Positions 6,966-30,028 of a stretch of DNA of 30,028 nucleotides are shown one piece after another (the stretch's first letter is position 1; each line of letters opens with the position of its first letter). Source of the stretch: a virus; the IMG/VR virus record IMGVR_UViG_3300031963_000669, positions 1-30,028 of that record. One strand, 5' to 3'. The position numbers were made by a program, and so were the translations under genes. Below the pieces are notes generated by a model that did no database searches, was not told the origin of the DNA, and was given only the letters and a program-made list of their open reading frames with translations.

Positions 6966-7954
6966 TGAAAACAGTTTTATTCTTTGACTTACATCTTAAT
7001 GAAAGAGGATGCAGTGTATCAACTTATGATTATGCTCATTATAATGAGGTTATACTAGGTAATAAATCAATAATAGCATCATATAAAACAGCTGAATTGA
7101 CTACTTATAATAAAATTAAAAACAGATTCCCAGAAGTATATCTTGTTGATAAGTTTAGTGATTTAGAAAATATAAAATGCGACTATGTTTATAACCAAAA
7201 GGCTGGTCATTATGATGGTGATTTAGTATCAACTGCTAAAAACTTAGTTCACGCTGTATTTCCTGCTTATGCCCCACATGGAGATGTATATGCCTATATA
7301 TCTGAATGGTTAGCTACTGGCATAAAACAAGGAAGTATCAAATGTGAATTCACATCAACCCCAGATCCATCTACTATAAAAAATGAATTATTATATGTTC
7401 CATACATGGTAGATTTACCTAAAATAAATAATGATTTTAAAGATTTTTTTAATATTAAAAAAGAAGAATTAGTTATTGGATGGTATGGAGGTATTAATAG
7501 TTTTGATGGAGAATTAGGTATAGCTAAACAAGTTGTGATAGATGTAGCTAAAAAAAGAAAAGATATTAAATTTATATTTGTAAACCAAGAAGCATTTTGT
7601 AATGAAGAAAATACAATATTTGTTGAAGGTACAACAGATTTAGAACAAAAAACTACATTTATAAACACATGTGATATGATGCTTCACGCTCGAGGTAGAG
7701 GTGAAACTTTTGGTTTAGCTGTAGCTGAATTTTCTATTAGAAATAAACCTATAATCACATATGGTAATTCTCGAGAAAGAAATCACATAATAACTTTAGG
7801 TGATAAAGGATTTTATTATTATGATTATAATTCATTATATAATATTCTCATGAATATTCAAAAATCTGATTTGAAAGGAAAAGAATGGAATTGTTACCAA
7901 TCACACACACCAGAAAAAGTAATGGAAAAATTTAATAATATATTTTTAATATGA
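6965..7954 (+). CDS. GT-B glycosyltransferase, GT4-like
   Basis: A 329-residue protein whose C-terminal half has the GT4 donor site: IGWYGGINSF begins the donor domain, and GRGETFGLAVAEFS contains the EX7E pair. The N-terminal domain is less typical, starting KTVLFFDLHLNERGCS, and its HYDGDL and APHGDVY segments may form the acceptor site. The Tyr/Asn/Lys-rich composition follows the extreme AT-richness of this stretch of the cassette. The start shares a base with the upstream stop and the end overlaps the next start (ATGA), so translation is probably coupled. Confidence 0.85.
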   Translation: MKTVLFFDLHLNERGCSVSTYDYAHYNEVILGNKSIIASYKTAELTTYNKIKNRFPEVYLVDKFSDLENIKCDYVYNQKAGHYDGDLVSTAKNLVHAVFPAYAPHGDVYAYISEWLATGIKQGSIKCEFTSTPDPSTIKNELLYVPYMVDLPKINNDFKDFFNIKKEELVIGWYGGINSFDGELGIAKQVVIDVAKKRKDIKFIFVNQEAFCNEENTIFVEGTTDLEQKTTFINTCDMMLHARGRGETFGLAVAEFSIRNKPIITYGNSRERNHIITLGDKGFYYYDYNSLYNILMNIQKSDLKGKEWNCYQSHTPEKVMEKFNNIFLI

Positions 7955-9807
7955 ATATAATAATTCCCATTGGTGGAGTAGGACAACGTTTTAAAGATGA
8001 GGGTTATGATATGCCTAAACCTTTAATTAATGTGTTGGGGAAACCTATGATTTATAAAGTTATAGATAACCTTAAAATTAAAAACACAGATAGGATTTAT
8101 ATTATTTATCATAACCATTTAAAGGAATTTAATTTTGAAACATTAATTAAATTCTGGTTTCCTAATAAAAACATATCTTTTATACCATTAGATCACCTAA
8201 CCCGAGGAGCATCAGAAACTGTTTTAAGAGGTTTAGAAACATTTACATTTGAAGAATTACAAGAGAATACATTAATATTAGATTGTGATACTTTTTATAA
8301 TGAAGATATAATTAGTAAATATAAATCTAGTGATAACAAAAATGTTGTATTTTATTTCAATGACACAACTCCCACACCTATATTTTCATATATTACTCTT
8401 AAAGATAATATTGTAGTTGATATTAAAGAAAAAGTTAAAATCTCAAACAATGCTAATACGGGCGCATATGGTTTTGAAAATGGCCAAGTATTAAAAAAGT
8501 ATTGTTCTGAAGTTTTAAATTTAGGTAATGAACTTTATATATCCCATGTTTACAATAAGATGATTATTGATGGGAATACAATACAAGGAAATGAAATTAA
8601 AGATTTTCATTGTGTTGGAACTCCATTACAATTAAAAGTATACTGCAATCAAAATAAAGACAAAGCATCAGAATTAAGAGTCTGCTTTGATTTAGATAAT
8701 ACTTTAGTGACCCACCCTACTATACCAGGTGATTATTCATCAGTATTACCTATACAGCGTAATATAAACTACTTAAAACTACTAAAATCATTAGGTCATA
8801 CTATTATTATTTATACCGCCCGTAGAATGAAAACTCATAAAGGTAATGTGGGGGCTATTATAGCAGATGTAGGTAAAATAACATTTGAATCATTAGATAA
8901 ATTCAATATCCCATATGATGAAATTCATTTTGGTAAACCGTATGCTAATTTTTATATAGATGACTTAGCTGTAAATGCTAACTCTTCATTAGATAAAGCT
9001 ATAGGAATATATGATACTAATACTCCATCTAGAAGTTTTAATAAAGTTGAATATAATGGTGATACTGTAACCAAAACCACATCCAATAATGGTGAAATAT
9101 ACTGGTACCAAAACATCCCAGGCCCAGCTAAAAAATATTTCCCAAAAGTATTAAATATAGTAGATAATAAAATCACTTTAGAAAACATAAATGGAGTCAG
9201 TTATTCTTATCTTTATATTAATAAATCTTTAACTGAGGATGATATCACAAAATTAGCTCTAGCTTTAGCTGATATTAGTACTAGTAGACAACCTTCAGAA
9301 ATAGATATTTATGCTAATTATTCTAAAAAATTATTATCACGTTACAATAATAATTTAGAAATCTATAGTAAGTATCCTTCATCAAAATATATTTTTGAAA
9401 CTATAAATAATAAATTAATAGAATATGAAACAAATAAAGAAGGTTATTTAACTATAATTCATGGGGATCCAGTTTTCACTAATATTTTAAAAACAGAAAC
9501 TGGGATTAAGCTTATTGATATGAGAGGTAAAGTAGGAGATGAATTAACAATTTTTGGAGACGCCTACTATGATTTAGCTAAAATATATCAATCATTAATA
9601 GGGTATGATTATATTTTAAATAATATAGAAATAGATGTTTTGTACACTCAAAAGTTAATAAAACATTTTGAATCCCAATTCCAAGAAGTTAATTTAAATA
9701 AAATAAAACTAATAACAGCTAGTTTATTATTTTCTCTTTTACCATTACATGAAGAAAATGAAGAACAATTCAATAAATATTTTAAACTAATTGAAAATTT
9801 AATATGA
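7951..9807 (+). CDS. Three-domain fusion: sugar/choline-type nucleotidyltransferase, HAD phosphatase-like, and APH/choline-kinase-like kinase
   Basis: A 618-residue protein with three recognisable enzymes in one chain. Residues 1-230 are a nucleotidyltransferase: IIPIGGVGQRF (4-14) is the NTP-binding loop, MPKPL (21-25) has the conserved Lys, and D111-C-D113 the metal site. Residues 243-350 are a HAD-superfamily domain: D247-L-D249 nucleophile and acid-base pair in CFDLDNT, TAR (289-291), K329, and D337-D338. Residues 360-618 are a phosphotransferase of the aminoglycoside/choline kinase fold: HGDPVFTNI (504-512, catalytic D506 and N511) and ID (522-523) as the metal-binding Asp. LicA/LicC-like combinations make CDP-choline for phosphocholine decoration; by analogy this protein could phosphorylate and activate a small alcohol or sugar. 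It is the only activated-precursor enzyme seen in the cassette. Confidence 0.88.
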   Translation: MNIIIPIGGVGQRFKDEGYDMPKPLINVLGKPMIYKVIDNLKIKNTDRIYIIYHNHLKEFNFETLIKFWFPNKNISFIPLDHLTRGASETVLRGLETFTFEELQENTLILDCDTFYNEDIISKYKSSDNKNVVFYFNDTTPTPIFSYITLKDNIVVDIKEKVKISNNANTGAYGFENGQVLKKYCSEVLNLGNELYISHVYNKMIIDGNTIQGNEIKDFHCVGTPLQLKVYCNQNKDKASELRVCFDLDNTLVTHPTIPGDYSSVLPIQRNINYLKLLKSLGHTIIIYTARRMKTHKGNVGAIIADVGKITFESLDKFNIPYDEIHFGKPYANFYIDDLAVNANSSLDKAIGIYDTNTPSRSFNKVEYNGDTVTKTTSNNGEIYWYQNIPGPAKKYFPKVLNIVDNKITLENINGVSYSYLYINKSLTEDDITKLALALADISTSRQPSEIDIYANYSKKLLSRYNNNLEIYSKYPSSKYIFETINNKLIEYETNKEGYLTIIHGDPVFTNILKTETGIKLIDMRGKVGDELTIFGDAYYDLAKIYQSLIGYDYILNNIEIDVLYTQKLIKHFESQFQEVNLNKIKLITASLLFSLLPLHEENEEQFNKYFKLIENLI

Positions 9808-10880
9808 TCATCCAGTTTGACATCCCAAACAACCCACATAAACATAGACAATTCTGTACAATATTAGATAATGTTTATTTAACACATCATAATAAAGATA
9901 CTAGTAATGGATCAGCTGTAGGATTAATATCTATAACCCATGATGGTAAATTAGTAAAAGCAGGTATTGATAAAGACACTCAAAAGTTAGGTAGTAAAGA
10001 AATATATTACGAAAATGGATTTAATAACTCTACTGACTATGATGAGGTAATAGATGAAAATGTATTTTTATTATATGATGATGCTGGAGTGAATTACTTA
10101 CATTCATTTTTTGATCTGTTTGGTAGATGTCTTTATTTTGATATTTTAAAACAAGAAAAAAACATTAAACTTGGACTCTCAGAAGAATTTTGGACTGACT
10201 CAGGAAAAAATGATTTTATTAAACAATGGTTAAAATTATATTATGGAGATGATTTAGAAATAATATCTTTTAAAAAAGGAAAAACATATAAAATTAAACA
10301 AATAATTCTTTCTAATTGTCTTTATTGGTCTCCTGAACATACAGGTCATCAACCTATAATGGAGTTAATAAAAAAAACAGTTGAGAAGATTCAACCTATT
10401 GAAGTTAAAGCTAATGGATGTTATATATCTAGACAGGACACTATTAAATATGGTTGGTTTCATCCTCGAGAAATGGTTAATGAATTAGAATTAATTGAGA
10501 AAATTCAATCTGAGTTGAATTATGATATAATTGAGCTTATGAATTATAATTTAATTGAAAAGATTCAAATTTTTAAATCATATAAAAATATTATCCAACA
10601 GAGTAGTGCTTCAAATGTTAACATATTATTTTCCCCTAAAGGAGTAAATAATATAATATTAACTAATCCAAAACTAGGACCTTGGTTAAATTACAAATGT
10701 CAAGAATTTTCAACTGTTTCTGGGTGTAATTTATTAATATTAGAAGATATAGGTGAATTAATTCTAAACTCAGCACAACCTGATAAAAATGATCTTAATA
10801 ATTTTCCTTGGAAGATTACAGACATAGATGGGGTTATAGATATCCTTAAACAAATAGATAGTGAAATTATTTGGAGTTAA
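9804..10880 (+). CDS. GT61-like (DUF563) glycosyltransferase
   Basis: A 358-residue protein. The segment GCYISRQDT (205-213), then PREMVNELELIEKIQ (221-235), matches the 'Y-I-S-R-x-(x)-R-x-x-x-N-E' core of GT61 enzymes. It is followed by a segment on 'EKIQIFKSYKNIIQQSSASNVNILF' lines in which SSASNVNILF takes the place of the family's GxHGAxLTNxxF loop, so the His-Gly is replaced. That altered loop is a reason for caution about activity or donor use. The start codon overlaps the upstream stop (ATGA). A 29-base AT-only-like gap follows before the next gene. Confidence 0.72.
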   Translation: MIIQFDIPNNPHKHRQFCTILDNVYLTHHNKDTSNGSAVGLISITHDGKLVKAGIDKDTQKLGSKEIYYENGFNNSTDYDEVIDENVFLLYDDAGVNYLHSFFDLFGRCLYFDILKQEKNIKLGLSEEFWTDSGKNDFIKQWLKLYYGDDLEIISFKKGKTYKIKQIILSNCLYWSPEHTGHQPIMELIKKTVEKIQPIEVKANGCYISRQDTIKYGWFHPREMVNELELIEKIQSELNYDIIELMNYNLIEKIQIFKSYKNIIQQSSASNVNILFSPKGVNNIILTNPKLGPWLNYKCQEFSTVSGCNLLILEDIGELILNSAQPDKNDLNNFPWKITDIDGVIDILKQIDSEIIWS

Positions 10881-10909
10881 CATCTTATATTATTATATTA
10901 TAAATAAAA

Positions 10910-11806
10910 ATGAAGTACCATATTAGTATACACATAACACCATATGAAATAGACAATTATCAATTGTTTATTCATCAATTAAGACGTAATTTAAATTATA
11001 TAAACACTGATATTATTTTTAATCCTTGTTTAAATCTATCTAATTATTTTTATGATTGGGAAAATAGTACTTTAAAAAGTGAGTTTTTTATTCATAAATT
11101 TAATGAATTGAATAAAATACTAGATAAAAAAATAACATTAGATAGTATTATTAATTTTGATGATAAAATATTAGGAGCATTAGATTACAAACGAGAATTT
11201 ATTAAAACTTATAAAGATAAAGTAGATGCTTTTATTTGGTTTGATAGTGATATGATATTCCCTGATGATACAATTTATTATTTAATAAATTCATTTGAAG
11301 AAGCTAATCATAATAAATGTATTGTCACCCCCCAAATTGTTAGATTATGGGACACATCATGGGATATTATTGTAAACAAACAGTATTTAAACAGATCTTT
11401 ATCTTTTGACACATATGCTGATTTTGATGGATATGAATTATATACACCTACAGAAGATAAAGAATTAATTGAAAACCCAATATATACTAAATTTGCATCA
11501 GGATGGTGCAATTTATTATCATCAACTCTATTCAAAGAATATGTTGAATATTCTGAAAAATTAGGTCATTATGGAAAAGATGATACTTTTGCTATGTTTG
11601 TGTTAGACATGTATAAGAAAAAAGGTCATGATATAAAACAATTTATAGTACAAAATTTAGTTGTGACTGAAAATAATAAATTTAAAATATCATCTTATGA
11701 TGATTTAATTATAAAAAATACTAATATTAAGTCAAAAGAAACCTTTAGACAAGAGTCTGAGGATGGAATGAATTATGAATTAAACCAATTATATAAAACC
11801 ATTTAA
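10910..11806 (+). CDS. GT-A glycosyltransferase with DxD motif
   Basis: A 298-residue protein with a GT-A nucleotide-diphospho-sugar fold. DAFIWFDSDMIFPDD places the metal-binding D112-S-D114 at the end of a hydrophobic strand. Upstream (about 35-110) lies the donor-binding half; downstream ASGWCNLLSS and GHYGKDDTFAMFVLD look like the acceptor site and catalytic Asp of the anp1/GT62-like or GT2-like enzymes. There is no signal or membrane segment. It is extremely rich in Asn, Lys, Ile and Tyr. A 75-base stretch with a possible gene remnant follows. Confidence 0.82.
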   Translation: MKYHISIHITPYEIDNYQLFIHQLRRNLNYINTDIIFNPCLNLSNYFYDWENSTLKSEFFIHKFNELNKILDKKITLDSIINFDDKILGALDYKREFIKTYKDKVDAFIWFDSDMIFPDDTIYYLINSFEEANHNKCIVTPQIVRLWDTSWDIIVNKQYLNRSLSFDTYADFDGYELYTPTEDKELIENPIYTKFASGWCNLLSSTLFKEYVEYSEKLGHYGKDDTFAMFVLDMYKKKGHDIKQFIVQNLVVTENNKFKISSYDDLIIKNTNIKSKETFRQESEDGMNYELNQLYKTI

Positions 11807-11880
11807 AACAATTATACTTAAATAACAAATATACAACTGATGATTTAGGTTTTCCATCAGGATGTTACATAATAAAATAA
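11797..11880 (+). pseudogene. Possible relic of a coding sequence (about 27 codons)
   Basis: In the frame ending with TAA at 11878-11880 the sequence reads open from 11797 and ends ...TTDDLGFPSGCYIIK, which looks like a genuine protein C-terminus rather than random intergenic AT-rich DNA. There is no start codon and the preceding codon in frame is TAA. It lies between two glycan genes, so it may be the tail of a deleted enzyme. Weak evidence. Confidence 0.3.
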
Positions 11881-11881
11881 T

Positions 11882-12436
11882 ATGAGACATAATTTAGAAC
11901 AATTAGTTAATCAACTTTATCAGACATCATCTGATATAAATGAACATATTCCTACATTAATTAAATATGGACAAGAATGTGAACATATAACAGAAATGGG
12001 TGTTAGAGGGATATATTCAACATGGGCATTTTTAGCCGCTGCTCCTAAAAAATTAATAAGTTATGATTTAGAAGATCCTTCTAATTGGGGAGGAAATATT
12101 AATGATGTTTATGAAACAGCAGAATCATATAGTTTAAATTTTGAATTTATTAAAGCTAACGTTTTAGAAATTGAAATTGAAGAAACTGATTTTTTGTTTT
12201 TAGATACATGGCATGTATATGAACAAGTAAGAGATGAATTGAAATTACATGCTAAAAAAGTTAAAAAATATATTGGATTTCATGATATTGTTTCTTGGGG
12301 AGAAAAAGGAGAAACTGAAGGTCATAAAGGGATAAACTATGCTATTAATGAGTTTTTAGAAAATAATAATGAATGGAAAGTAAAAGAAAAATTTTTAAAT
12401 AATAATGGATTATTAATTATAGAAAAAATTAAATGA
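11882..12436 (+). CDS. Class I SAM-dependent methyltransferase (CmcI/Methyltransf_24-like)
   Basis: A 184-residue Rossmann methyltransferase. EMGVRGIYSTWAF (38-50) is the SAM loop, YDLED (61-65) ends strand 2, LFLDTWHVYEQVRDEL has the D-x2-H-x-Y of the CmcI-like group, and FHDIVSWG supplies a later His-Asp. Members of this group methylate sugars and other small hydroxyl groups, and often sit in glycan clusters. The start is one base after the preceding remnant; the end overlaps the next start by four bases (ATGA). The acceptor is unknown. Confidence 0.82.
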   Translation: MRHNLEQLVNQLYQTSSDINEHIPTLIKYGQECEHITEMGVRGIYSTWAFLAAAPKKLISYDLEDPSNWGGNINDVYETAESYSLNFEFIKANVLEIEIEETDFLFLDTWHVYEQVRDELKLHAKKVKKYIGFHDIVSWGEKGETEGHKGINYAINEFLENNNEWKVKEKFLNNNGLLIIEKIK

Positions 12437-13122
12437 AAATAATCTACCGCATCTCAGACACTGGTTATAATAAAGTAAAACCAGATTATATAAACAATGA
12501 AAATTGTTTAAAAAACTTTGTTTATATATTTGATAATCAAAATCTTGAAATTATAGCTGATAATTGTAGTGAAACTACATTGCGTATGATAATGAAATAT
12601 GTTCATCCTAACATGGTAAACATAGTATCTGTAGGTCATGGAGCCGGAACATTTAATTTAGCTTTAGATAAAGCGTTGAAATGGGATGATAATGAGATAG
12701 TTTATTTTGTAGAAAATGATTACCTACACAAACCAGGATCAGATAAAGTCCTTAAAGAAGGATTTGATTTAGGAGCATCTTTTGTATCACTATATGACCA
12801 CCCAGACAAATATAGGAGCCCAGAACAAGGTGGTAACCCATATTGTGATGGTGGAGCTGAAGATACTAGAGTGTATTTAACAGATTCATGTCATTGGAAA
12901 ATAACAAATAGTACAACTATGACATTCGCCTCTAAAGTATCAACTTTAAAACGAGTTGAACCTATATTAAGAAAATATACTCAAGGATCATATCCTGAAG
13001 ATTTTAAAATGTTTTTAGAATTAAGAGAACAAAACGAATTATTAATCACCTCAATCCCAGGTTACTCAACTCATGGAGAAACAGCTTGGTTATCACCTTT
13101 AACTAATTGGGATCAAATATGA
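12433..13122 (+). CDS. GT-A fold glycosyltransferase, unknown family
   Basis: A 229-residue protein starting KIIYRISDTGY. The segment EIVYFVENDYLHKPGSDKVL has a hydrophobic strand followed by E94-N-D96, in the position of the DxD metal motif of GT-A enzymes. CHWKITNSTTMTFASK and YPEDFKMFLELR may contribute to the acceptor pocket, and the end (SIPGYSTHGETAWLSP) has the conserved look of phage and giant-virus glycosyltransferases. No signal peptide. It is tied to both neighbours by ATGA overlaps. Confidence 0.72.
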   Translation: MKIIYRISDTGYNKVKPDYINNENCLKNFVYIFDNQNLEIIADNCSETTLRMIMKYVHPNMVNIVSVGHGAGTFNLALDKALKWDDNEIVYFVENDYLHKPGSDKVLKEGFDLGASFVSLYDHPDKYRSPEQGGNPYCDGGAEDTRVYLTDSCHWKITNSTTMTFASKVSTLKRVEPILRKYTQGSYPEDFKMFLELREQNELLITSIPGYSTHGETAWLSPLTNWDQI

Positions 13123-13883
13123 TAAGTGTAATTATACCAACATATAAATCACCAGATATTCTTGATTTATGCCTTCAATCAGCTATTAAAGGACAACAAA
13201 ATCAAAATCAAATTATAGTTGTTGTAGATGGGTTCTATGATTTAAATAAAGAAGTACTTGAAAAATGGGCTAAACATATTGACATTTTAAATTTAGAACA
13301 AAATGTAGGACTATGTAGAGGCACTAATTTAGGAGTTTATAATGCTCAATATGATAAAGTACTCATTGTAAATGATGATAATGTATTTCCTTTGAATTGG
13401 GATATTCATTTAGAAGCAGATTATATTGAAAATTCATTATTAACTCCTAATCAAATTGAACCATGCCCAAGTATGTTTCCTCAATTTCATATTAAGGATT
13501 TAGGGAAATCTGTTGATACATTTGATTTAAAACGTTTTCAAGAATATGAAAAAACTTTAAATGAAGTAGTATATAAAAAAACTCCTGAAGAAACAGGATC
13601 AACATTACCTATTTTTATGTCTAAAATAGATTATTTAAAAGTAGGAGGTTGGGATGAAAATTATGATTTAGGAATGGTAGCCGACTGGGATTTTTTCCTT
13701 AAATGCCAACTGTCAGGATTAAAAATGCTTAGAACTTATAACTGTCATTTTTATCATTTTGCTTCTGTATCCACTAATGGAGAAAAAAGACAAAAAGCAG
13801 AACAGAATGGTCATGAGTATGCCAAATATAAATGGGGTGATTATATAAAACATAATCCGCAAAATAATTTAAAGTTTTTATGA
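13119..13883 (+). CDS. GT2-type glycosyltransferase
   Basis: A 254-residue GT-A enzyme beginning MISVIIPTYKS, the classic first strand of GT2. VLIVNDDNVFP (81-91) holds the metal-binding acids (D86-D87), GGWDENYDLGMVADWDFFLK carries the G-G-(F/W)-D-E and the later acid-rich ED/WD catalytic region. I chose the ATG at 13119, which overlaps the upstream stop as ATGA; a TTG 12 bases earlier would add four residues that do not fit the family. The end overlaps the next gene (ATGA). Confidence 0.9.
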   Translation: MISVIIPTYKSPDILDLCLQSAIKGQQNQNQIIVVVDGFYDLNKEVLEKWAKHIDILNLEQNVGLCRGTNLGVYNAQYDKVLIVNDDNVFPLNWDIHLEADYIENSLLTPNQIEPCPSMFPQFHIKDLGKSVDTFDLKRFQEYEKTLNEVVYKKTPEETGSTLPIFMSKIDYLKVGGWDENYDLGMVADWDFFLKCQLSGLKMLRTYNCHFYHFASVSTNGEKRQKAEQNGHEYAKYKWGDYIKHNPQNNLKFL

Positions 13884-14551
13884 GGCTGTTAAAAGATATA
13901 ACACCTCGAAACTTTAACCACTTCTGCCAGCGAACAACTAACTATCAAAAATCTCAATTAAGACAAGATCTATTTGTATTGTTTGTTACTAATTTTAAAC
14001 AAGATGGTTATTTTATTGAAGCTGGGGCTAGTAATGGAGTCACATTCAGTAATACTTTTACTTTAGAAAAAAACTTTAATTGGAAAGGAATACTTATTGA
14101 ACCTAATATATATTGGGAAGAATCTTTAAGTAAAAATAGAACATGCCATATAGGCTATAAAGCACTTTGGAAAGAAAATAGTTCTGTTTTGTTTAATGAA
14201 ATTTTAAATAATCCTACTTTATCACATATATCAACTGTTGACCCAAGTAGTTGGATGTTTGATATTAACCAAGAGAAAAAACAGCAATATATAGTTCCAA
14301 GTATTACTTTATTAGATGTTTTAAACTACTATAACGCCCCAAATAACATAGATTATTTATCTTTAGACATTGAAGGATCAGAATATGATGTTTTAAGCAG
14401 TTTTGATTTTGAAACATATAATATTGAAATCATAACAGTTGAACACAACTATTCTCCTAATAGAGAAAAAATATTTAATTTATTACAAGATAGATACACT
14501 CGTGTGTTAACTGAAGTAAGTGGAAAAGAGGATTGGTATATTAAAAAATAG
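13880..14551 (+). CDS. Second FkbM-family methyltransferase
   Basis: A 223-residue methyltransferase of the FkbM type and last gene of the glycan cassette. SQLRQDLFVLF leads into GYFIEAGASNGVTFSNT, the SAM-binding loop, then GILIEPN, where the Glu holds the ribose, and LSLDIEGSEYDVL, the D-x-E-G-x-E signature. It is closer to the classic FkbM form than the copy at 6366 and only distantly similar to it, so the two probably methylate different positions. The stop codon TAG at 14549 overlaps the first base of the repeated promoter element. Confidence 0.9.
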   Translation: MRLLKDITPRNFNHFCQRTTNYQKSQLRQDLFVLFVTNFKQDGYFIEAGASNGVTFSNTFTLEKNFNWKGILIEPNIYWEESLSKNRTCHIGYKALWKENSSVLFNEILNNPTLSHISTVDPSSWMFDINQEKKQQYIVPSITLLDVLNYYNAPNNIDYLSLDIEGSEYDVLSSFDFETYNIEIITVEHNYSPNREKIFNLLQDRYTRVLTEVSGKEDWYIKK

Positions 14552-21099: not shown

Positions 21100-21458
21100 A
21101 AAAGAAATTAACATTATGGTGGGAAAAGAAAACTAACTTTAATCCCTATGGTGTTTGGCCTGAAGGTGCTTGTCCTGTACAAGCAGAAGGTTATACTGAA
21201 GACGGTAAGTGGTACTATTTTAGAGCAAGAGGTAGTCATATTCGGTTTGTGATTTGTGAGTCGGAAGAGGATTATAGTAATTGGCCTGACACTAAGTATC
21301 TCTTTGAAAGAGAATTAAATTATGGTGATGGTATGTTTCAAGCAGGTTGGATGTCTCATGAAGATGCTGTTCGTTTAACTACAGTATGGTTAAATGAGTA
21401 TTATGAAAAAACTCAAGAACTTAAATTAAACAAAAAATGGCTGAACAAACTGAAATAG
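21087..21458 (+). CDS. Hypothetical 123-residue protein
   Basis: A soluble protein starting basic (MVGLKKKLTLWWEKK) with a Trp/Tyr-rich strand region (DGKWYYFRARGSHIRFVICE) and a helical end. The aromatic strands suggest a small beta-sheet fold. It overlaps the GH16 gene by 22 bases. No family recognised. Confidence 0.65.
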   Translation: MVGLKKKLTLWWEKKTNFNPYGVWPEGACPVQAEGYTEDGKWYYFRARGSHIRFVICESEEDYSNWPDTKYLFERELNYGDGMFQAGWMSHEDAVRLTTVWLNEYYEKTQELKLNKKWLNKLK

Positions 21459-22126
21459 AATTCTCAGGTTACAAATGGCAATCAGGTAACAGATGGGGTA
21501 ATTATCATCCTAAAAATCCTACATATTGGTGTGATCCATCATGTGTAGATGTCACTAGTAATATTTTACGATTACAAACTAAACGCCATAAGATAGTAAC
21601 TTCAGATGCTGGTGTAATTGATATTGGAATTGGGTTGGTAACATCTGTAGATGATTTTGGCTACGGTAGATTTGAAGCTGAAGTAATGTTACCTAAAGGT
21701 ACAGGTTTATTCCCTGCATTTTGGTTATGGGGAGCAGATAGTTGGCCACCTGAAATTGACATATTTGAAGGTTGGAGTCGTAAAAGTGGTTTATATACTT
21801 CAAAATATATTCCCTACTTTAGTTTATCTTCAAATATTCATTATGGAGATTCAAATTATACTCATAAATCAATCAAATCCAAATCTCATATGGTCTGGAA
21901 AAGATTTGATAGATGTTATACTAAATTTGAATTAGATTGGTACCCAGATGAAATTATTATCTCATATGATAATATGATTGTGAGACGAATTGACAACATG
22001 GATGTACTTCAATGGTTTGAAAATAAAAAAATGCAAGTTGTATTTAACAACGGAGTAGACAACCCATCTGAGTACACTAATGATTCAGTAATGTTAGTTA
22101 AGAATTTTAAATACACAGAATGGTAA
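21437..22126 (+). CDS. Glycoside hydrolase family 16 enzyme
   Basis: A 229-residue beta-jelly-roll hydrolase that cuts beta-1,3/1,4-linked polysaccharides such as laminarin, lichenan, agar or carrageenan. GYGRFEAEVMLPKG and PAFWLWGA are typical GH16 strands, and PPEIDIFEGW holds the ExDxxE catalytic triad: nucleophile E106, D108 and acid/base E111. The FNNGV and SVMLVKNFKYTEW end strands complete the fold. There is no signal peptide and no carbohydrate-binding module, so the enzyme is either released at lysis, carried in the virion, or acts inside the cell. The start ATG lies in the end of the previous gene, and the end overlaps the next gene by seven bases. Substrate cannot be fixed from sequence. 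Confidence 0.88.
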   Translation: MAEQTEIEFSGYKWQSGNRWGNYHPKNPTYWCDPSCVDVTSNILRLQTKRHKIVTSDAGVIDIGIGLVTSVDDFGYGRFEAEVMLPKGTGLFPAFWLWGADSWPPEIDIFEGWSRKSGLYTSKYIPYFSLSSNIHYGDSNYTHKSIKSKSHMVWKRFDRCYTKFELDWYPDEIIISYDNMIVRRIDNMDVLQWFENKKMQVVFNNGVDNPSEYTNDSVMLVKNFKYTEW

Positions 22127-23054: not shown

Positions 23055-24158
23055 ATGATATCAGATGATTTTCAAATTGGACCTAATGGTGCTTATGAGC
23101 GTGTAGGTAATGATTTAGACATAGCATACCAAGACCTACTACAAGACATTCTTGATAACGGAGTAGAAAAAGAAACTAGAAATGGAGGGACCATATCAGT
23201 ATTCGGAAGACAGATCAGACATAATATGCAAGATGGCTTTCCATTGCTTACAACTAAAAAGATGGCGTGGAAAACAATGGTAACTGAGTTGTTATGGTTT
23301 CTGAGAGGTGATACCAATATCAAATACCTTGTTGACAATAATTGTCATATCTGGGATGGTGATGCTTATAAAGCGTATTTAAAAAAATATGAAAAGGATA
23401 AACTTCATGGTGTTATTTATGAAAACGATGAAACCCAAAATAGACCTTTTTCAAAAGAAGAATTTATTAATTGGATTAAGAATAATGATAAGTTTTCAGA
23501 ATTATATGGTGAATTAGGGCCAATTTATGGAGCACAATGGAGAAACTGGTTAAATATTCCTGGTGAAGAAAATAAAGGCAGTAAAGACCAAATTGCAAAC
23601 TTAATCTCTGAACTCAAAACAAACCCAGACTCAAGACGACTAATGGTTTCAGCTTGGAATGTAGGTGAATTAGACCAAATGGTTCTTCCACCTTGCCATT
23701 ATGGATTTCAAGTTTATACAAGAGAGTTGAGTGATAAAGAAAGAGTTGCTATTTTTATGGAAAATAAAAGAACTAATAAGTTTGAAGATAATAATTGTGA
23801 TATACCTAAACGAGCAATCTCTTTAATGTGGAATCAACGTTCAGTAGATACGTTTTTAGGTTTACCATTCAACATTGCTAGTTATGGTTTACTACTTGAA
23901 ATCATTGCTAAAGAAGTTAATATGGTACCTGATGAATTGATTGGTAACTTAGGTGATGTGCATCTTTATAGTAACCATATTGAACAGGCTAAAGAGCAGA
24001 TTAATAGAACACCATTTGAATTACCTATAGTTAAATTAAGTTCGGGTCATAATCTAAGAGCTATTCTTAAAGGTAACTTTAATGAAATTGATCCTAATGA
24101 CATTATGTTAATCAATTATCAATCACACCCATCAATTAAAGCACCTTTATCAAATTGA
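23055..24158 (+). CDS. thyA: Thymidylate synthase (ThyA type)
   Basis: Converts dUMP to dTMP using methylene-tetrahydrofolate, supplying thymidine for phage DNA. Motifs are intact: FGRQIRHNMQDGFPLLTTKK (50-69), ELLWFLRGDTN, D192-S-R194-R195 (phosphate binding), LPPCHYGFQ with the nucleophile C214, QRSVDTFLGLPFNIASYG with D265 and N273, and DVHLYSNH with H303 and Y305. At 367 residues it is longer than E. coli ThyA (264): extra sequence lies mainly between residues about 105 and 150, where other long ThyA proteins also carry inserts. The ATG at 23055 is a good start, with 13 bases to the preceding gene. The last 13 codons are repeated, with one silent change, at 24841. Confidence 0.96.
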   Translation: MISDDFQIGPNGAYERVGNDLDIAYQDLLQDILDNGVEKETRNGGTISVFGRQIRHNMQDGFPLLTTKKMAWKTMVTELLWFLRGDTNIKYLVDNNCHIWDGDAYKAYLKKYEKDKLHGVIYENDETQNRPFSKEEFINWIKNNDKFSELYGELGPIYGAQWRNWLNIPGEENKGSKDQIANLISELKTNPDSRRLMVSAWNVGELDQMVLPPCHYGFQVYTRELSDKERVAIFMENKRTNKFEDNNCDIPKRAISLMWNQRSVDTFLGLPFNIASYGLLLEIIAKEVNMVPDELIGNLGDVHLYSNHIEQAKEQINRTPFELPIVKLSSGHNLRAILKGNFNEIDPNDIMLINYQSHPSIKAPLSN

Positions 24159-24159
24159 T
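24120..24159 (+). repeat. 40-bp direct repeat, left copy (3' end of thyA)
   Basis: The last 39 coding bases of thyA plus one. It matches 24841-24880 at 39 of 40 positions; the single difference changes TCA to TCT, both Ser, so the second copy would also encode SHPSIKAPLSN followed by a stop. The 681 bases between the copies carry two small genes. Confidence 0.85.
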
Positions 24160-24183: not shown

Positions 24184-24582
24184 ATGAAAAAATCCGAACT
24201 ACAACAAATTATTAGAGAAGAGATCACTAAAATGTTAAATGGAGACATAAATGAATCTATGGATAAGGATAATTATAAAAAAATTACTGATGCTGTCAAT
24301 AATTATAAACAAGATATTAATAAAGCTTTAGTAGAAGGTTCAGACCATAGATATTGGAAAATACAAGTACTTCCAAATTATGATAATTTTATTGGTGGTT
24401 TTAATCTTCAAGCAACAGCTACTGATGCAGTAGATAGAAACATTGTTCTCGGGAAATATGAAATAAGAAAAACCATAGATAGTGTTAAGAAATTACCGTT
24501 TGTAAGTAAAGCTAAAGTATCTTCAGCTTATAATACAAAAATGTTAACTGTTATTTCTATAGGTCTAAAAATGAAAAAATGA
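24184..24582 (+). CDS. Hypothetical 132-residue protein with MKKSELQQII leader
   Basis: Begins MKKSELQQIIREEITKML, an amphipathic helix that is repeated almost unchanged at the start of the next reading frame. The body is mixed alpha/beta (HRYWKIQVLPNYDNFIGGFNLQA, then DRNIVLGKYEIRKTID and AKVSSAYNTKMLTVISIGLK), perhaps a small ferredoxin-like fold. No signal peptide. As far as I recall, the same type of leader opens several unrelated proteins in marine T4-like phages, which would suggest an added sorting or assembly tag, but I could not check this here. The gene lies wholly within the insert flanked by thyA repeats. Confidence 0.7.
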   Translation: MKKSELQQIIREEITKMLNGDINESMDKDNYKKITDAVNNYKQDINKALVEGSDHRYWKIQVLPNYDNFIGGFNLQATATDAVDRNIVLGKYEIRKTIDSVKKLPFVSKAKVSSAYNTKMLTVISIGLKMKK

Positions 24583-24833
24583 AAAAATCCGAACTACAAC
24601 AAATCATTAAGGAGGAAATTAGTAAGGTTTTAACTAAAAATCAACTTGTTAAAGACTTTAAAAAATAGATAGGAAAGGATAAAACTCCTACTTCTGCTGA
24701 TATCGACTACTATACCAGAGAATACAAACTCACTCCAGACCAAAAATCAATACTTAAAAAAATATTTCCTTCTGATGATATAAAAATCAAAAGTACAGGC
24801 CCTACCCCTGATACAAGATTTAGAAATAAATAA
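24579..24833 (+). pseudogene. Second MKKSELQQII gene, interrupted by an in-frame TAG
   Basis: From ATG 24579 the frame reads MKKSELQQIIKEEISKVLTK and on to DFKK, then a TAG at 24666-24668. After it the same frame stays open for 54 more codons (IGKDKTPTSADIDYYTRE, ... PTPDTRFRNK) to TAA at 24831-24833, and these codons look coding. One reading is a gene broken by a recent nonsense mutation; the other is amber read-through or a short 29-residue product. The first 26 bases equal those of the upstream gene, so the pair probably arose by duplication or by swapping bodies onto a common leader. Confidence 0.6.
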
Positions 24834-24840
24834 TAGTTGC

Positions 24841-24880
24841 CAATCACACCCATCAATTAAAGCACCTTTATCTAATTGAT
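24841..24880 (+). repeat. 40-bp direct repeat, right copy (extra thyA 3' end)
   Basis: Copy of thyA positions 24120-24159 with one silent base change. It has no open frame leading into it. It marks the right edge of the 681-bp insert that holds the MKKSELQQII gene pair. Confidence 0.85.
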
Positions 24881-24921
24881 TAAGTGTTTAGAGAAGCTTA
24901 GACAGGAGTCATAGGCTCATA

Positions 24922-24938
24922 TATGTATAATAAATAAA
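24922..24938 (+). promoter_or_regulatory. TATGTATAATAAATAAA motif, possible phage promoter
   Basis: TATGTATAATAAATAAA, a one-base variant of the 24163 and 25414 blocks, about 55 bases before the lipoprotein ATG. The 150 bases 24841-24991 contain the thyA repeat, this motif and no gene. Confidence 0.35.
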
Positions 24939-24991
24939 ACCACATTTGTTGTGAGTTAAATCTTAAGGTTTTGGGAATACACTTCAAAACC

Positions 24992-25330
24992 ATGAAAAAG
25001 ATATTTCCCACACTGATGATTTTGATAGCAATGCTATCATTCACCTCCTGCTACCTTCAACAAGAAGTTGAAGTAATCCGAAACAGAAAACAAAAAACTG
25101 AGCAGTTTGTTCATCAAAGACAAACTATTAGAGATGGCTTGTTTTCTAAAAATCGCAAACTAAGAGACCGACATCAATACTTCTATCATGACAGTGATGG
25201 TGGTTGGCACTTTAGACCTAGCCCTGATAGAAAGGACTTTATACACTACAAGAGAACTGGTGGTGTAAGAGGTACTGGGGGTAAAGTAAGAGTAATTAAA
25301 AGGGCTACTGTTGCCAAGCCTAGAAAGTAA
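24992..25330 (+). CDS. Small lipoprotein, basic, 112 residues
   Basis: I start it at the ATG 24992; a TTG 21 bases earlier adds seven residues in front of the signal and is less likely. MKKIFPTLMILIAMLSFTSC is a lipoprotein signal peptide with the lipid-modified Cys at residue 20 (LSFTS|C). The mature part is basic and hydrophilic: VEVIRNRKQKTEQF, then RDRHQYFYHDSDGGWHFRPS and a Lys/Arg-rich end. The protein should be anchored to the periplasmic face of a membrane or exported. Short basic phage lipoproteins can be outer-membrane spanin subunits or superinfection-exclusion factors; neither is proved. It opens the export block that runs to the end of the window. Confidence 0.78.
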   Translation: MKKIFPTLMILIAMLSFTSCYLQQEVEVIRNRKQKTEQFVHQRQTIRDGLFSKNRKLRDRHQYFYHDSDGGWHFRPSPDRKDFIHYKRTGGVRGTGGKVRVIKRATVAKPRK

Positions 25331-25348: not shown

Positions 25349-25427
25349 AATCGCGATTAGTCTCCTTCATAATTATGAATAGTTGATTGTTCATGATAGG
25401 ATTAGAATCTGAATATTTATAATAAAC
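25349..25427 (+). promoter_or_regulatory. Palindromes and TATTTATAATAAA motif before the protease gene
   Basis: The 112-base gap 25331-25442 holds two perfect palindromes, AATCGCGATT (25349-25358) and TTCATAATTATGAA (25366-25379), and the block TATTTATAATAAAC at 25414, which is shared with 24163. The last is 16 bases before the protease start and is the best promoter candidate; the palindromes may be regulator sites. Confidence 0.4.
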
Positions 25428-25442
25428 AAAAAATAAAAGTAT

Positions 25443-27731
25443 ATGAAAAAATTAATTTCCGTTCTGTTATTAACTGTTTTTTCAATTGTAAGTTTCTCTC
25501 AAAACTTAGCTGAAAACGTTAATAACCAAGTAATCTTAAAATACAAGCAAGGTACACCTTATAGACTTGTAGATGCATTCACTGAATTTTATAGTGTTCC
25601 TGTAGTTGCTCAATTTGATGCACTTGGGATGATTGTAGTACAATTTTCTGGTAACTATGATGATTTTTATAAGAACTGTTCTGATAGTGATTTATTTGAC
25701 ATTATAGAAAGAAACCAAATCCAGGAAATGAAAATGGATTATATTCCAAATGATCCTGAGTTTGCTGTTAGTTGGCATTTAAGACAAGCATCTGATAGAG
25801 ACATTGATGCTGATGAGGCTTGGGATTTACTCCCAACTGACAATCAATGGGTATCAGTAGCAATGTTTGACGGTGGTTTGGATATGACAATGCCTGAATT
25901 TGTAGGTAATGTTGATAGTCCGTTTAACGCTGTTAATGGCACAAGTGCTATCCCATATGTTAACTCAGAAGACAAACACGGTACCGCTTGTTCAGGTACC
26001 ATTGCCGCTAGAACAAATAATGGAGTTGGTGTTAGTAGTGTAGGTAATAACTTTGTAAGAGTTATGCCTGTTAATATTATGTCACAAGTATATGCCGGTG
26101 GTAATTTCGCTACCACATCTGCTATACAAATCGCAGCTGTTAACGCTGCTATAAACAATCCAAATTGTGTTGCTATCGCAATGTCATATGGTGGTAGTGG
26201 TTATTCAGCTGCTTTAGAAGCCGCTTTTCAATCTGCTAGAGTAAATGGTAGAGGTGGAAAAGGAATGATGGTATTTGCTTCTTCAGGTAATGGAAGCTCA
26301 GGTACTGCTGCTCAATACCCAGCTAATTATAATGGAGTATGGGGTGTTGGTGCAACAACAAGCACAGATCTTAGAGCATCATTCTCTAATTTTGGTCAGA
26401 TATGTGACATCTCAGCTCCTGGTACTCAAATTAGAACCACAGACCGTTTAGGTGCTGATGGTTATAATGCCACTGACTATACTTCAATTAGTGGTACTTC
26501 ATTTAGTTGCCCTATTACAGCTGCAGCTTCAGCTATTGTCGCTTACAAAAATTGGGAATTAACTGATGATGAGATTTTAGCCATATTGTCTAGTACCTGT
26601 GAGAAAGTAGGTGGTTATACTTACTCTAATGACCCAGCTTGGCCATTAAGTACTCGTAGTAATGAATTAGGATATGGCCGTATTAACCTTAAAAATGCTG
26701 TTATTGCCACACCAAACCCAGGTGGTACACCTCCACCTCCACCTCCAGTGTTAGTTTCTAATTACACAGTTAATAGTGTTGTTGTGACACCAACTAGTGT
26801 GAATTTAGGTGAAACTATTTTAGTGAATTATAACGCTATGGTGGCTGAAGAGCTCAATGTAACATCTACTTTTGCTACATTTGTACAAGTACAATATCGT
26901 TACTCAGCCAATTCAACCTACGGTGATGCTGATGATATCATTATTGGAGTTGATAGTGTAGGTTTAGGTGGTGGAATCAATTCAGTAACCAAATCATTCT
27001 CTTATAATGTTGGTGGAATGGCTGGTACACGTTATGTGTTTGTAACTATTAACTATGATAACACTGTTGAAGAATCTATTATCACAGACAATACTAGCTT
27101 CAAAGCATTTAATGTTGTTAACCCATCCATGTCAGGTACTGATGTAAGAATTGAATTAGTACAACCTGTAGCTAATCCTTGGACTACATCATTACAAATT
27201 GTGAACACACAATGGAGAGCAGTTAACACAGGTACAGTTCCTATTACTCAAATTAATTATACTAGACGTTGGGTTGATTGCACAGCAGCATTTGGATGTA
27301 TAACTAACGCTACTTGGAATGGTAATTTATTACCTGGTCAATCAACATTGTTACCTGCTAATAATTCTTATGTGAGTATTAACTTATGCCATCCAATTCG
27401 TTGTGCTGTACCAGTTGGTGCCTCAAATACATTTAGACTTGATATTGTAAGTGTTAATGGTAGTACTGGTGATGCTGATTTGGCTAATAATAGACTTGAT
27501 TTAGTATTTAATAGATTAGCAGCCAACCAAGAAGATATTATTGGTAACTATCCTTTAATAGATGACCCAAATGCTATTTTAATAGAGGATGACTATCCTG
27601 TCTCTATGGATATTTATACCATATCAGGCGCATTGTTAGATATTAATCGTTACAATGAATTACCTAGTGGTATGTACATCTTAAAAGCGAATTATTTAGA
27701 CCGCACTGAAACATTTAAGTGGGCTAAGTAA
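25443..27731 (+). CDS. Secreted subtilisin-like serine protease (S8) with type IX secretion sorting tail
   Basis: A 762-residue exported protease. Residues 1-19 are a signal peptide (MKKLISVLLLTVFSIVSFS). Residues 20-115 look like an inhibitory propeptide. The S8 domain (about 115-425) has the full catalytic set: D143 in AMFDGG, H179 in KHGTACSG, N283 in SSGNG and S353 in SGTSFSCP. A Pro-rich linker (GGTPPPPPPV, 427-436) leads to two beta-sandwich regions (about 440-690) with a CARDB-like look. The last 70 residues, with MDIYTISGALL, NELPSGMYILKA and the terminal TFKWAK, form a type A T9SS C-terminal domain, which targets proteins through the Bacteroidota outer membrane. A phage copy of such an enzyme could shave host surface proteins, block other phages, or aid release. 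Confidence 0.92.
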   Translation: MKKLISVLLLTVFSIVSFSQNLAENVNNQVILKYKQGTPYRLVDAFTEFYSVPVVAQFDALGMIVVQFSGNYDDFYKNCSDSDLFDIIERNQIQEMKMDYIPNDPEFAVSWHLRQASDRDIDADEAWDLLPTDNQWVSVAMFDGGLDMTMPEFVGNVDSPFNAVNGTSAIPYVNSEDKHGTACSGTIAARTNNGVGVSSVGNNFVRVMPVNIMSQVYAGGNFATTSAIQIAAVNAAINNPNCVAIAMSYGGSGYSAALEAAFQSARVNGRGGKGMMVFASSGNGSSGTAAQYPANYNGVWGVGATTSTDLRASFSNFGQICDISAPGTQIRTTDRLGADGYNATDYTSISGTSFSCPITAAASAIVAYKNWELTDDEILAILSSTCEKVGGYTYSNDPAWPLSTRSNELGYGRINLKNAVIATPNPGGTPPPPPPVLVSNYTVNSVVVTPTSVNLGETILVNYNAMVAEELNVTSTFATFVQVQYRYSANSTYGDADDIIIGVDSVGLGGGINSVTKSFSYNVGGMAGTRYVFVTINYDNTVEESIITDNTSFKAFNVVNPSMSGTDVRIELVQPVANPWTTSLQIVNTQWRAVNTGTVPITQINYTRRWVDCTAAFGCITNATWNGNLLPGQSTLLPANNSYVSINLCHPIRCAVPVGASNTFRLDIVSVNGSTGDADLANNRLDLVFNRLAANQEDIIGNYPLIDDPNAILIEDDYPVSMDIYTISGALLDINRYNELPSGMYILKANYLDRTETFKWAK

Positions 27732-27740
27732 TTAAGGTTG

Positions 27741-27780
27741 TTAGTTGCATTTAAGCCGTTACGACTGGCTAAGTAACTAA
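27741..27780 (+). terminator. Candidate stem-loop after the protease gene
   Basis: TTAGTT (27741-27746) pairs with AACTAA (27775-27780) and AGCC (27754-27757) with GGCT (27767-27770), with an unpaired stretch between. No U-run. The 3' arm also repeats the protease's final TGGCTAAGTAA. A weak terminator or processing site. Confidence 0.35.
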
Positions 27781-27793
27781 TTAAAACCAATAT

Positions 27794-28165
27794 ATGAAAC
27801 ACTTATTATTAGCTTTAATGCTAGCAATAGGTTTCGACACAAGTGCTCAAGTTGATGGAATGTTTGCTTTTAGTCTGGACAGTAACCAAGATACTGTTTA
27901 CAGTATGTACAATGCGTCTCCAGATATTAAAGATGAGTTAAAGGATCATTTACTTGAGATGTTTCATGGTTATGAATTAACAGACGGTGTATGGATAATA
28001 AATCTACCTAATAGTAATTCTAAGGTATTAGGTGATTTGTTTTTAACAGAAACCCAAACGTGTGTTTTATTTGATTTTTATGTTGACGAGGTAAAATACT
28101 CAGATGGTACAACTTACCAAGCTGAACGTTTCACCAAACCTCTTAGAACATTAAACAAATATTAA
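27794..28165 (+). CDS. Small secreted protein, 123 residues
   Basis: MKHLLLALMLAIGFDTSAQ is a signal peptide cleaved after Ala-Gln. The mature 104 residues are acidic and likely globular (MFAFSLDSNQDTVYSMYN, ... DGVWIINLPNSN, ... CVLFDFYVDEVKY), with one Cys. There is no lipobox and no T9SS tail, so the product should be periplasmic. Its first 14 coding bases equal those of the next gene, so the two share a leader. It lies between two proteins with T9SS tails and could be a chaperone or inhibitor for the protease, which is speculation. Confidence 0.75.
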   Translation: MKHLLLALMLAIGFDTSAQVDGMFAFSLDSNQDTVYSMYNASPDIKDELKDHLLEMFHGYELTDGVWIINLPNSNSKVLGDLFLTETQTCVLFDFYVDEVKYSDGTTYQAERFTKPLRTLNKY

Positions 28166-28169
28166 ACAC

Positions 28170-30028
28170 ATGAAACACTTATTTGCCATTTTAATGCTTC
28201 TGGCCACTGTAGTTGGTCAAGCGCAGTATCTCGCTGGTGCGGTTGATACAACATTTATTCTTAATAATGACGGAGTTCCATTCTCTACTAACGGCTATTT
28301 AAGAGCTATGGGAGTAGAAGTAGTTGGTAACTCCGTTTATTATGCTTTTGCTACTAGTCCTGGAGTACCTGCTATTAGAAAGTATGACTTTCAAGGTAAT
28401 GAGGATGAGAGTTGGTATACTAATCAAATGTCAACTTGGGGTACTCAATTTGCTACTACATATTTAGAACCTGAAAAAGATGCTACTGGTAATTATACTG
28501 GTAGTTTCTTTATCTGCGGTAGAAACAGTTTTAACTCTATGGCTGACCAAGGTGTTAGATTTTTAAATAAAATCAATGCTGATGGTACTAGAGATTTAAA
28601 CTTTGTTTGCCCTATTACAAGCTGGATTAATATTTGTTCTACTATTTATCATGATTGGGAGAATAATAAATTATATTATGCCTACCAAAATGGTAATAGC
28701 ACTACTCAAACAATTGTTAGCTGTGACCCAAACACAGGACAAACACTACAGACACTTACAATCCCAGGATCAAATGGATTAGTTAGTAAAATAGCTAAAA
28801 TTCCTAATAGCAATGATCTCATAGTTGGTGGTAGTGTTAGCTTCGCTCATAACGGACATGACTATATTAGCTTATTTAAATTAACAGAACAATTTACTAT
28901 TGCTCCACTTGAAGGCATTACTGATTTACCTTGTAGCTTTGTAGTAGCCGATTTATTGTTTGTTAATGATATGGATTGTGCTGGTAATGAAAATGGCTCA
29001 ATTAAAGCCTATATTGCTGGTAGTGGAAGCCAAATGGCAGGGGTTGATGGTCTTAGAGGAATCGCTCGATTTACTTTAAACAATGGAGTATGGAGTATTG
29101 ATGCTAATTATAATGCTGGATGTAGTGGGTCAATTAGTGATATTGCTTATTATAATTGTCATTTAATTGCTACTGGTAACTTTGCTAGTTCAATGCCTAC
29201 TGGTTTATATGCTCCATCTTGGACTCCTAAAGTAACTGCATTTACAAGTGAAGGACAACTTAGTCCTGAATTTCAAATGCAAAACATTGGATATGGTTTA
29301 GGAGGTGTTTACACCGCTGGTCTTGAAAATAATATAGGACAAGGCTCAGGTAGATGTTTAGCTGTTAATCCAAATGATGATGGTAATGATAGATGGGAAA
29401 TCTTTGTTGGTGGTGCTTTTGTTAATATAATACAAGCAGGTAGTTCTCGTACTGTACTTAAGTCCGCTAATTACATTGCTAAATTATATGGATTTAGAAA
29501 CACAGTTGACCCTAATTTCTCATATTGTTTAGATGGTAATACCATTTCAACATTTGATATGATTAATACTTCAGGATGTGAGAAATGGGAATTGTTTACT
29601 ACTACTAATCCACTTACTAATTGGACTTTAATTAGAACAGAAACAACTTATGACTTCACTGATACTGCTTTAGTTAAAGGTGTATGGTATAGACTTGTTA
29701 GAACAGTCACTGAGTGTGGTAGTTCATGTTCTTATGGGTATATTATTCATATGGATGCCTCAAACTGTAACCCATCACATACTGGAACTGAATTAAGAGC
29801 ATTAGTAGTTAAACCTCAACCTACAATCACACCCCAAGAAACAACCCCATCTGACATTTCAGTGTACCCAAACCCAACTTTAGGGTTAGTTACTGTAAAT
29901 GATGATTTTAAAGGAGCATTTAGAAATATAGATGTGTATAATTCTCTAGGCACTAAAGTATTAAGTACAACTACTAATATAGATGCTTATCAATTGAACA
30001 TAGATGAACTTCCTAGTGGAGTGTACAT
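28170..30028 (+). CDS. Large secreted delta-60-repeat-like protein with T9SS sorting tail, 3' end outside window
   Basis: ATG at 28170; the frame is open for 619 codons to the window edge. MKHLFAILMLLATVVGQAQ is a signal peptide. The body is rich in Gly, Asn, Thr and Tyr with repeating strand pairs; FLNKINADGTRDLNF and similar units (KVTAFTSEGQLSPEF, YIAKLYGFRNTVDPNF) match the 'I-x-x-L-x-x-D-G-x-x-D-x-x-F' pattern of delta-60 repeats, which build beta-propeller-like surface proteins. Near the end ISVYPNPTLGLVTV, then IDVYNSLGTKVL and DELPSGVY are the classic type A T9SS C-terminal domain, cut off a few residues before its expected end. The product is probably exported to the host surface or medium; a binding or decoy role is possible. 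Confidence 0.88.
   Translation, partial: MKHLFAILMLLATVVGQAQYLAGAVDTTFILNNDGVPFSTNGYLRAMGVEVVGNSVYYAFATSPGVPAIRKYDFQGNEDESWYTNQMSTWGTQFATTYLEPEKDATGNYTGSFFICGRNSFNSMADQGVRFLNKINADGTRDLNFVCPITSWINICSTIYHDWENNKLYYAYQNGNSTTQTIVSCDPNTGQTLQTLTIPGSNGLVSKIAKIPNSNDLIVGGSVSFAHNGHDYISLFKLTEQFTIAPLEGITDLPCSFVVADLLFVNDMDCAGNENGSIKAYIAGSGSQMAGVDGLRGIARFTLNNGVWSIDANYNAGCSGSISDIAYYNCHLIATGNFASSMPTGLYAPSWTPKVTAFTSEGQLSPEFQMQNIGYGLGGVYTAGLENNIGQGSGRCLAVNPNDDGNDRWEIFVGGAFVNIIQAGSSRTVLKSANYIAKLYGFRNTVDPNFSYCLDGNTISTFDMINTSGCEKWELFTTTNPLTNWTLIRTETTYDFTDTALVKGVWYRLVRTVTECGSSCSYGYIIHMDASNCNPSHTGTELRALVVKPQPTITPQETTPSDISVYPNPTLGLVTVNDDFKGAFRNIDVYNSLGTKVLSTTTNIDAYQLNIDELPSGVY

What the first reader, a model, noticed from the sequence alone, without database searches (positions are those of the whole stretch)
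25443..30028. Phage-encoded cargo for the host type IX secretion system
Two long proteins (subtilase at 25443, delta-60-like at 28170) have both a Sec signal peptide and a type A T9SS C-terminal domain, with motifs YPNP, (I/V)Y-x-S/L-G and LPSG-x-Y. T9SS is known as a Bacteroidota system for sending adhesins and proteases to the cell surface. Their presence in a T4-like phage suggests the virus hijacks T9SS during infection to alter the host surface, possibly to block competing phages, defeat host surface receptors, digest exudate or matrix, or aid release. They lie 0.9 kb after phage thyA with the same base use and a shared upstream motif, so contamination by host DNA is less likely.
Basis: partly seen in the sequence, partly recalled or inferred. 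Interest (0 to 1): 0.85.

Follow-up and report, generated by a model that had tools for sequence, protein, structure and literature searches.

The report
Phage cargo for host type-IX secretion
This virus of Bacteroidota bacteria carries genes for a protease and a second large protein that both look addressed for export through the bacterium's own type IX secretion machine; the idea is already published for other phages, but here the protease is an old, conserved gene of large T4-like phages, and some relatives also carry the bare address tag with nothing attached.

Summary
The C-terminal tail of the protein at 28170 is a curated type A T9SS sorting domain, cut by the contig end (35 bits; 53-55 bits in full-length homologues). 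The subtilase (25443-27731) has an intact catalytic set and a signal peptide, but only a shortened, sub-threshold tail (17.5 bits, cut-off 23): it has LPSG-x-Y and the last strand, but no YPNP. Contamination is excluded in practice: the subtilase lies in ten viral contigs (window plus nine), one of them (175 kb) carrying T4-type terminase, portal, capsid and sheath genes. It is under strong purifying selection (dN/dS 0.05-0.17), and the cellular relatives found are only about 23-39% identical. The delta-60 label has no HMM support.

Best explanation: late-acting surface effectors exported by Sec and then by the host T9SS, the protease trimming surface proteins. Export is likely but unproven; the role is inference. 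The idea is not new: T9SS-tagged phage proteins were reported in crAss-like phages (2019) and Cryophage (2020, with hijack proposed). New here: a conserved protease cargo in T4-like phages, type B tags in relatives, and "orphan" proteins consisting of a signal peptide plus a type B sorting domain only.

The parts
25443..27731 (+). secreted S8 subtilase (762 aa), core gene of this phage group
   Evidence: Peptidase_S8 101.8 bits; D143, H179, S353 and N283 invariant in 8 homologues; dN/dS 0.05-0.17
25443..25499 (+). Sec-type signal peptide of the subtilase, probable cut FS|QN
   Evidence: sequence; a crude rule, no SignalP available
25851..26609 (+). subtilase catalytic domain (residues 137-389)
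   Evidence: Pfam match
27597..27728 (+). reduced type A T9SS C-terminal domain: LPSG-x-Y motif and last strand kept, YPNP lost
   Evidence: TIGR04183 17.5 bits, below the cut-off of 23; same place in homologues; beats 9,998 of 10,000 shuffles
28170..30028 (+). large secreted protein with type A CTD, truncated by the contig end (637 aa in homologues); body of unknown fold
   Evidence: no Pfam hit outside the tail
28170..28223 (+). Sec-type signal peptide, probable cut QA|QY
   Evidence: sequence
29862..30026 (+). type A T9SS C-terminal domain (first ~54 of 72 model positions)
   Evidence: TIGR04183 35 bits and PF18962 33.8 bits, both over curated cut-offs
27794..28165 (+). 123-aa secreted protein between the two cargo genes, conserved in relatives; no CTD
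   Evidence: 94% and 86% identical in G001 and G002, 31-32% in G003 and G004; no Pfam hit
24992..25330 (+). small basic lipoprotein (lipobox LSFTSC) upstream of the subtilase
   Evidence: sequence; conserved in G001 and G002
25413..25430 (+). promoter-like motif TATTTATAATAAAC upstream of the subtilase, kept in G001 and G002
   Evidence: related core motif also at 24926
23055..24158 (+). phage thyA anchoring the locus
   Evidence: PHROG 160, 354 bits

Best explanation
The two genes encode phage-made surface effectors. Each is exported to the periplasm by Sec (inferred from the signal peptide), recognised through its C-terminal type A sorting domain and moved across the outer membrane by the host T9SS (inferred; sorting domain shown for 28170, marginal for the subtilase), then anchored or released. 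The subtilase most likely cuts host surface or matrix proteins late in infection. Its neighbours in relatives are envelope-attacking genes (lytic transglycosylase, endolysin), so the likeliest benefits are destroying surface receptors (superinfection exclusion, fewer progeny lost on debris) and easier release. The second protein is probably a surface-displayed binding or shielding protein present only in some members.
For: CTD over the curated cut-off on 28170 and its homologues; subtilase tail matched at the same place in homologues and above nearly all shuffles. Catalytic residues invariant. Same gene order in independent contigs. T4-type TerL, portal, capsid and sheath on the 175-kb relative; terminase on the 163-kb and 294-kb relatives. 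Purifying selection on both. Cellular subtilases found only at about 23-39% identity, so not a recent host pick-up. SLT transglycosylase downstream in G001, endolysin and secreted nuclease beside the subtilase in G004. Motifs D and E, the part that survives in the subtilase, suffice for export of a GFP fusion (last 22 residues of HBP35; PMC10202324). Gliding adhesins exported by the T9SS may serve as flavobacterial phage receptors (PMC13288928; PMC7345892).
Against: Subtilase tail is sub-threshold; in more distant relatives it fades further (G005 7.2 bits; G005, G006 and G009 have no TIGR04183 match), so its T9SS dependence may be partial or lost. No host assigned, no expression or secretion data. 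AlphaFold models too poor to confirm the folds (mean pLDDT 46 and 38). The role as receptor cutter is analogy only.
Confidence: 0.6

Rival explanations
1. The subtilase is a Sec-exported periplasmic or lysis-stage enzyme; its tail is a relict sorting domain inherited from a bacterial ancestor and T9SS is not used. It breaks periplasmic or outer-membrane proteins to aid lysis.
For: Tail below the cut-off in every homologue and undetected in the distant ones; lysis-type neighbours.
Against: The C-terminal motif is conserved at residue level among the closer homologues (ELPSG-x-Y-I and KWAK), and the tail is under purifying selection; the adjacent gene has a full CTD.
Confidence: 0.25
2. The proteins feed the infected cell or community: secreted hydrolase and binding protein acting as auxiliary metabolic genes that digest external protein.
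For: S8 proteases with T9SS tails are common nutritional enzymes of Bacteroidota (general knowledge); a GH16 gene lies at 21437.
Against: The GH16 has no signal peptide; the neighbours are envelope enzymes rather than uptake or metabolic genes.
Confidence: 0.15
3. Bacterial contamination, chimera or prophage-host junction.
For: Tails and signal peptides are bacterial in style.
Against: Same order in independent contigs from separate metagenomes, phage genes on both sides, terminase or structural genes on the large relatives.
Confidence: 0.02

Closest known systems
Cryophage T9SS cargo (PMC7468147, 2020)
   Same: Bacteroidota phage genes ending in type A T9SS sorting domains; hijack of host T9SS and superinfection exclusion proposed there
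   Different: 76-kb circular phage; cargo is endoglucanase, GH39 and PA14 proteins in hypervariable islands; here a conserved subtilase in large T4-like phages
T9SS sorting-domain ORFs upstream of the head genes in crAss-like phages (PMC6949934, 2019)
   Same: phage-encoded T9SS tags; comparable genes found here directly upstream of TerL and portal
   Different: a different phage group; those recovered here carry type B tags, no protease
Cellular Bacteroidota S8 proteases with T9SS type A sorting domain
   Same: signal peptide, S8 domain, C-terminal sorting domain
   Different: found only at about 23-39% identity, mostly over the catalytic half; the phage tail is shortened

Membership tests
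T9SS type A cargo (protein at 28170) | C-terminal TIGR04183/PF18962 domain over the curated cut-off | tested here: met
   35 and 33.8 bits though truncated; 53-55 bits in full-length homologues
T9SS type A cargo (subtilase) | C-terminal TIGR04183/PF18962 domain over the curated cut-off | tested here: not met
   17.5-19.4 bits in the window and homologues; better than 9,998 of 10,000 shuffles, so a reduced relative of the domain
T9SS type A cargo | Sec signal peptide | tested here: met
   by eye and a crude rule only; no SignalP
T9SS type A cargo | T9SS-dependent export | not testable with these tools
   needs experiment
Peptidase S8 | S8 domain with Asp-His-Ser and oxyanion Asn | tested here: met
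   101.8 bits; D143, H179, S353, N283 invariant
delta-60 repeat / DUF5122 beta-propeller | match to the repeat model | tested here: not met
   no Pfam hit outside the CTD at E 0.01; model confidence too low to judge the fold
Phage-encoded T9SS cargo (Cryophage kind) | cargo gene in a bona fide phage genome | tested here: met
   terminase or structural genes on relatives' contigs; synteny
T4-like phage | T4-type replication and structural genes | tested here: met
   clamp-loader subunits in the window; TerL, portal, major head protein, sheath in relative G004; the window itself holds no structural gene

The most novel reading that the evidence does not exclude
These phages do not only use the host T9SS but also jam it: three divergent relatives encode 111-113 aa proteins made of a signal peptide plus a type B sorting domain and nothing else. 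Such orphan tags could occupy the PorP/SprF partner and block display of host adhesins that serve as phage receptors, while tagged cargo remodels the surface. The window itself lacks the orphan gene.
Probability: 0.15. Interest if true: 0.8.

Novelty: new member of a known kind. Interest (0 to 1): 0.5.

Why it matters
It shows that T9SS-addressed proteins are not an oddity of one phage: a protease with such a tail is a conserved gene of large T4-like Bacteroidota phages, and type B tags occur in dozens of further viral contigs. It makes testable whether phages control what their host displays on its surface during infection, and offers candidate natural inhibitors of the T9SS.

Tried and rejected
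AlphaFold models of both proteins were too poor (pLDDT 46 and 38) for fold searches. PorP/SprF (PF11751) was not found in the phages, but the control was silent, so absence is not shown. Searches of INPHARED gave no relative of the second protein and only weak subtilase hits. Cryophage MT820023 is not in the collection, so no direct comparison. Contamination was tested through synteny and rejected. The count of short type B proteins in phage against cell (3 of 8 against 1 of 43 rows) is suggestive only: frames are non-independent and not all cellular rows were printed. Short frames also occur among cellular matches (type B: 101, 103 and 119 aa; type A: 87-120 aa), some perhaps at contig ends.

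Full report
What is in the window. The record is a 30,028-base IMG/VR contig and the window is all of it. It carries T4-type clamp-loader genes at one end and thyA at 23055-24158. Downstream follow a small lipoprotein gene, the subtilase gene (25443-27731), a 123-aa secreted protein, and a large secreted protein cut by the contig end (28170 onward).

The sorting domains. The 28170 protein ends in a type A T9SS domain that passes both curated thresholds although about 18 residues are missing. Two homologues complete it and score 53.5 and 55.4 bits. The subtilase tail is weaker: 17.5 bits against a cut-off of 23. Homologues match at the same C-terminal position. An HMM built from 28 cellular tails places the subtilase tails just behind the clear CTD proteins among 508 phage ORFs; the window copy alone is beaten by 2 of 10,000 shuffles. 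It keeps LPSG-x-Y and the last strand but has no YPNP. Published work says the last 22 residues of one P. gingivalis domain, holding motifs D and E, suffice for export of GFP (PMC10202324), so a reduced tail could work; this is inference.

It is phage DNA. Nine further viral contigs hold the subtilase, at 54-94% identity over the aligned full-length copies (one contig holds only the first 174 residues). The 40- and 52-kb relatives share gene order with the window over most of its length outside the glycosyltransferase block. A 163-kb relative has the same neighbours, though not the 28170 gene, and a terminase. A 175-kb relative carries T4-type terminase, portal, major head protein and tail sheath. 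The subtilase is under strong purifying selection (dN/dS 0.05-0.17), the 28170 gene less so (0.16-0.21). The cellular matches found are only about 23-39% identical, so this is an old phage lineage. The second protein was found only in the window and its two closest relatives: an accessory gene.

Context. In G001 the cargo genes are followed by an SLT transglycosylase; in G004 an endolysin and a secreted nuclease flank the subtilase. This suggests an envelope or lysis module and late action. Expression was not measured.

Type B tags and orphans. Relatives also encode type B (TIGR04131) proteins. Three divergent relatives (G001 26574-26915, G003 35020-35355, G006 = L041 3550-3885) encode 111-113 aa proteins that are a signal peptide plus the domain alone; the G001 and G003 copies pass the Pfam CHU_C cut-off, and the G006 copy passes TIGR04131. 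Literature: type B tags need a PorP/SprF partner, are probably not cleaved, and alone do not export GFP. A decoy or plug role is a speculation worth testing. Forty-nine viral contigs carry relatives of this domain, some directly upstream of TerL and portal genes; two phage genomes of 635 and 642 kb carry it too.

Prior knowledge. T9SS-tagged phage proteins are reported for Cryophage, with the hijack and superinfection-exclusion idea, and for crAss-like phages. Host gliding proteins displayed by the T9SS may be phage receptors. The finding is therefore a new member of a known kind, with a conserved protease cargo and the orphan tags as the new elements.

Noticed in passing
window 24120-24159 and 24841-24880; L042 4765-4818 and 5273-5326: The 3' end of thyA is repeated (40 nt, 98%) after an inserted stretch with a different small ORF; the same arrangement with another insert is seen in a relative, and most relatives have one copy. 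Looks like a gene-insertion site at the end of thyA.
   Followed up: partly
G001 26574-26915 (L015 6574-6915), G003 35020-35355 (L020 15020-15355), L041 3550-3885: Orphan type B T9SS sorting domains: signal peptide plus domain only, in three divergent phages.
   Followed up: partly
L100, L127 (and L146, fragment): A type B T9SS-tagged protein of 412-439 aa lies directly upstream of, or close to, a terminase gene (phrog_6681), with a portal gene following in L127.
   Followed up: partly
L111, L113, L117, L119: 998-1132 aa type B tagged proteins in contigs of 55-270 kb with a terminase gene.
   Followed up: partly
window 6366-14551: Block of sugar-related genes (glycosyltransferase-like, nucleotidyltransferase, methyltransferase-like) with lower GC (26%), mostly without counterparts in the closest relatives: a hypervariable island.
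   Followed up: no
window 21437-22126: GH16 glycosidase without signal peptide, kept in G001 and G003.
   Followed up: no
window 24184-24238 and 24579-24633: The start MKKSELQQII(R/K)EEI is repeated in two neighbouring small ORFs, the second short.
   Followed up: no
G003 40230-42598 and G004 8576-10852: Conserved three-gene cassette of secreted proteins (about 382, 187 and 189 aa), one type B tagged, one with a PKD domain.
   Followed up: no
G004 24599-25306: Secreted protein that looks like an outer-membrane barrel; no family hit.
   Followed up: no
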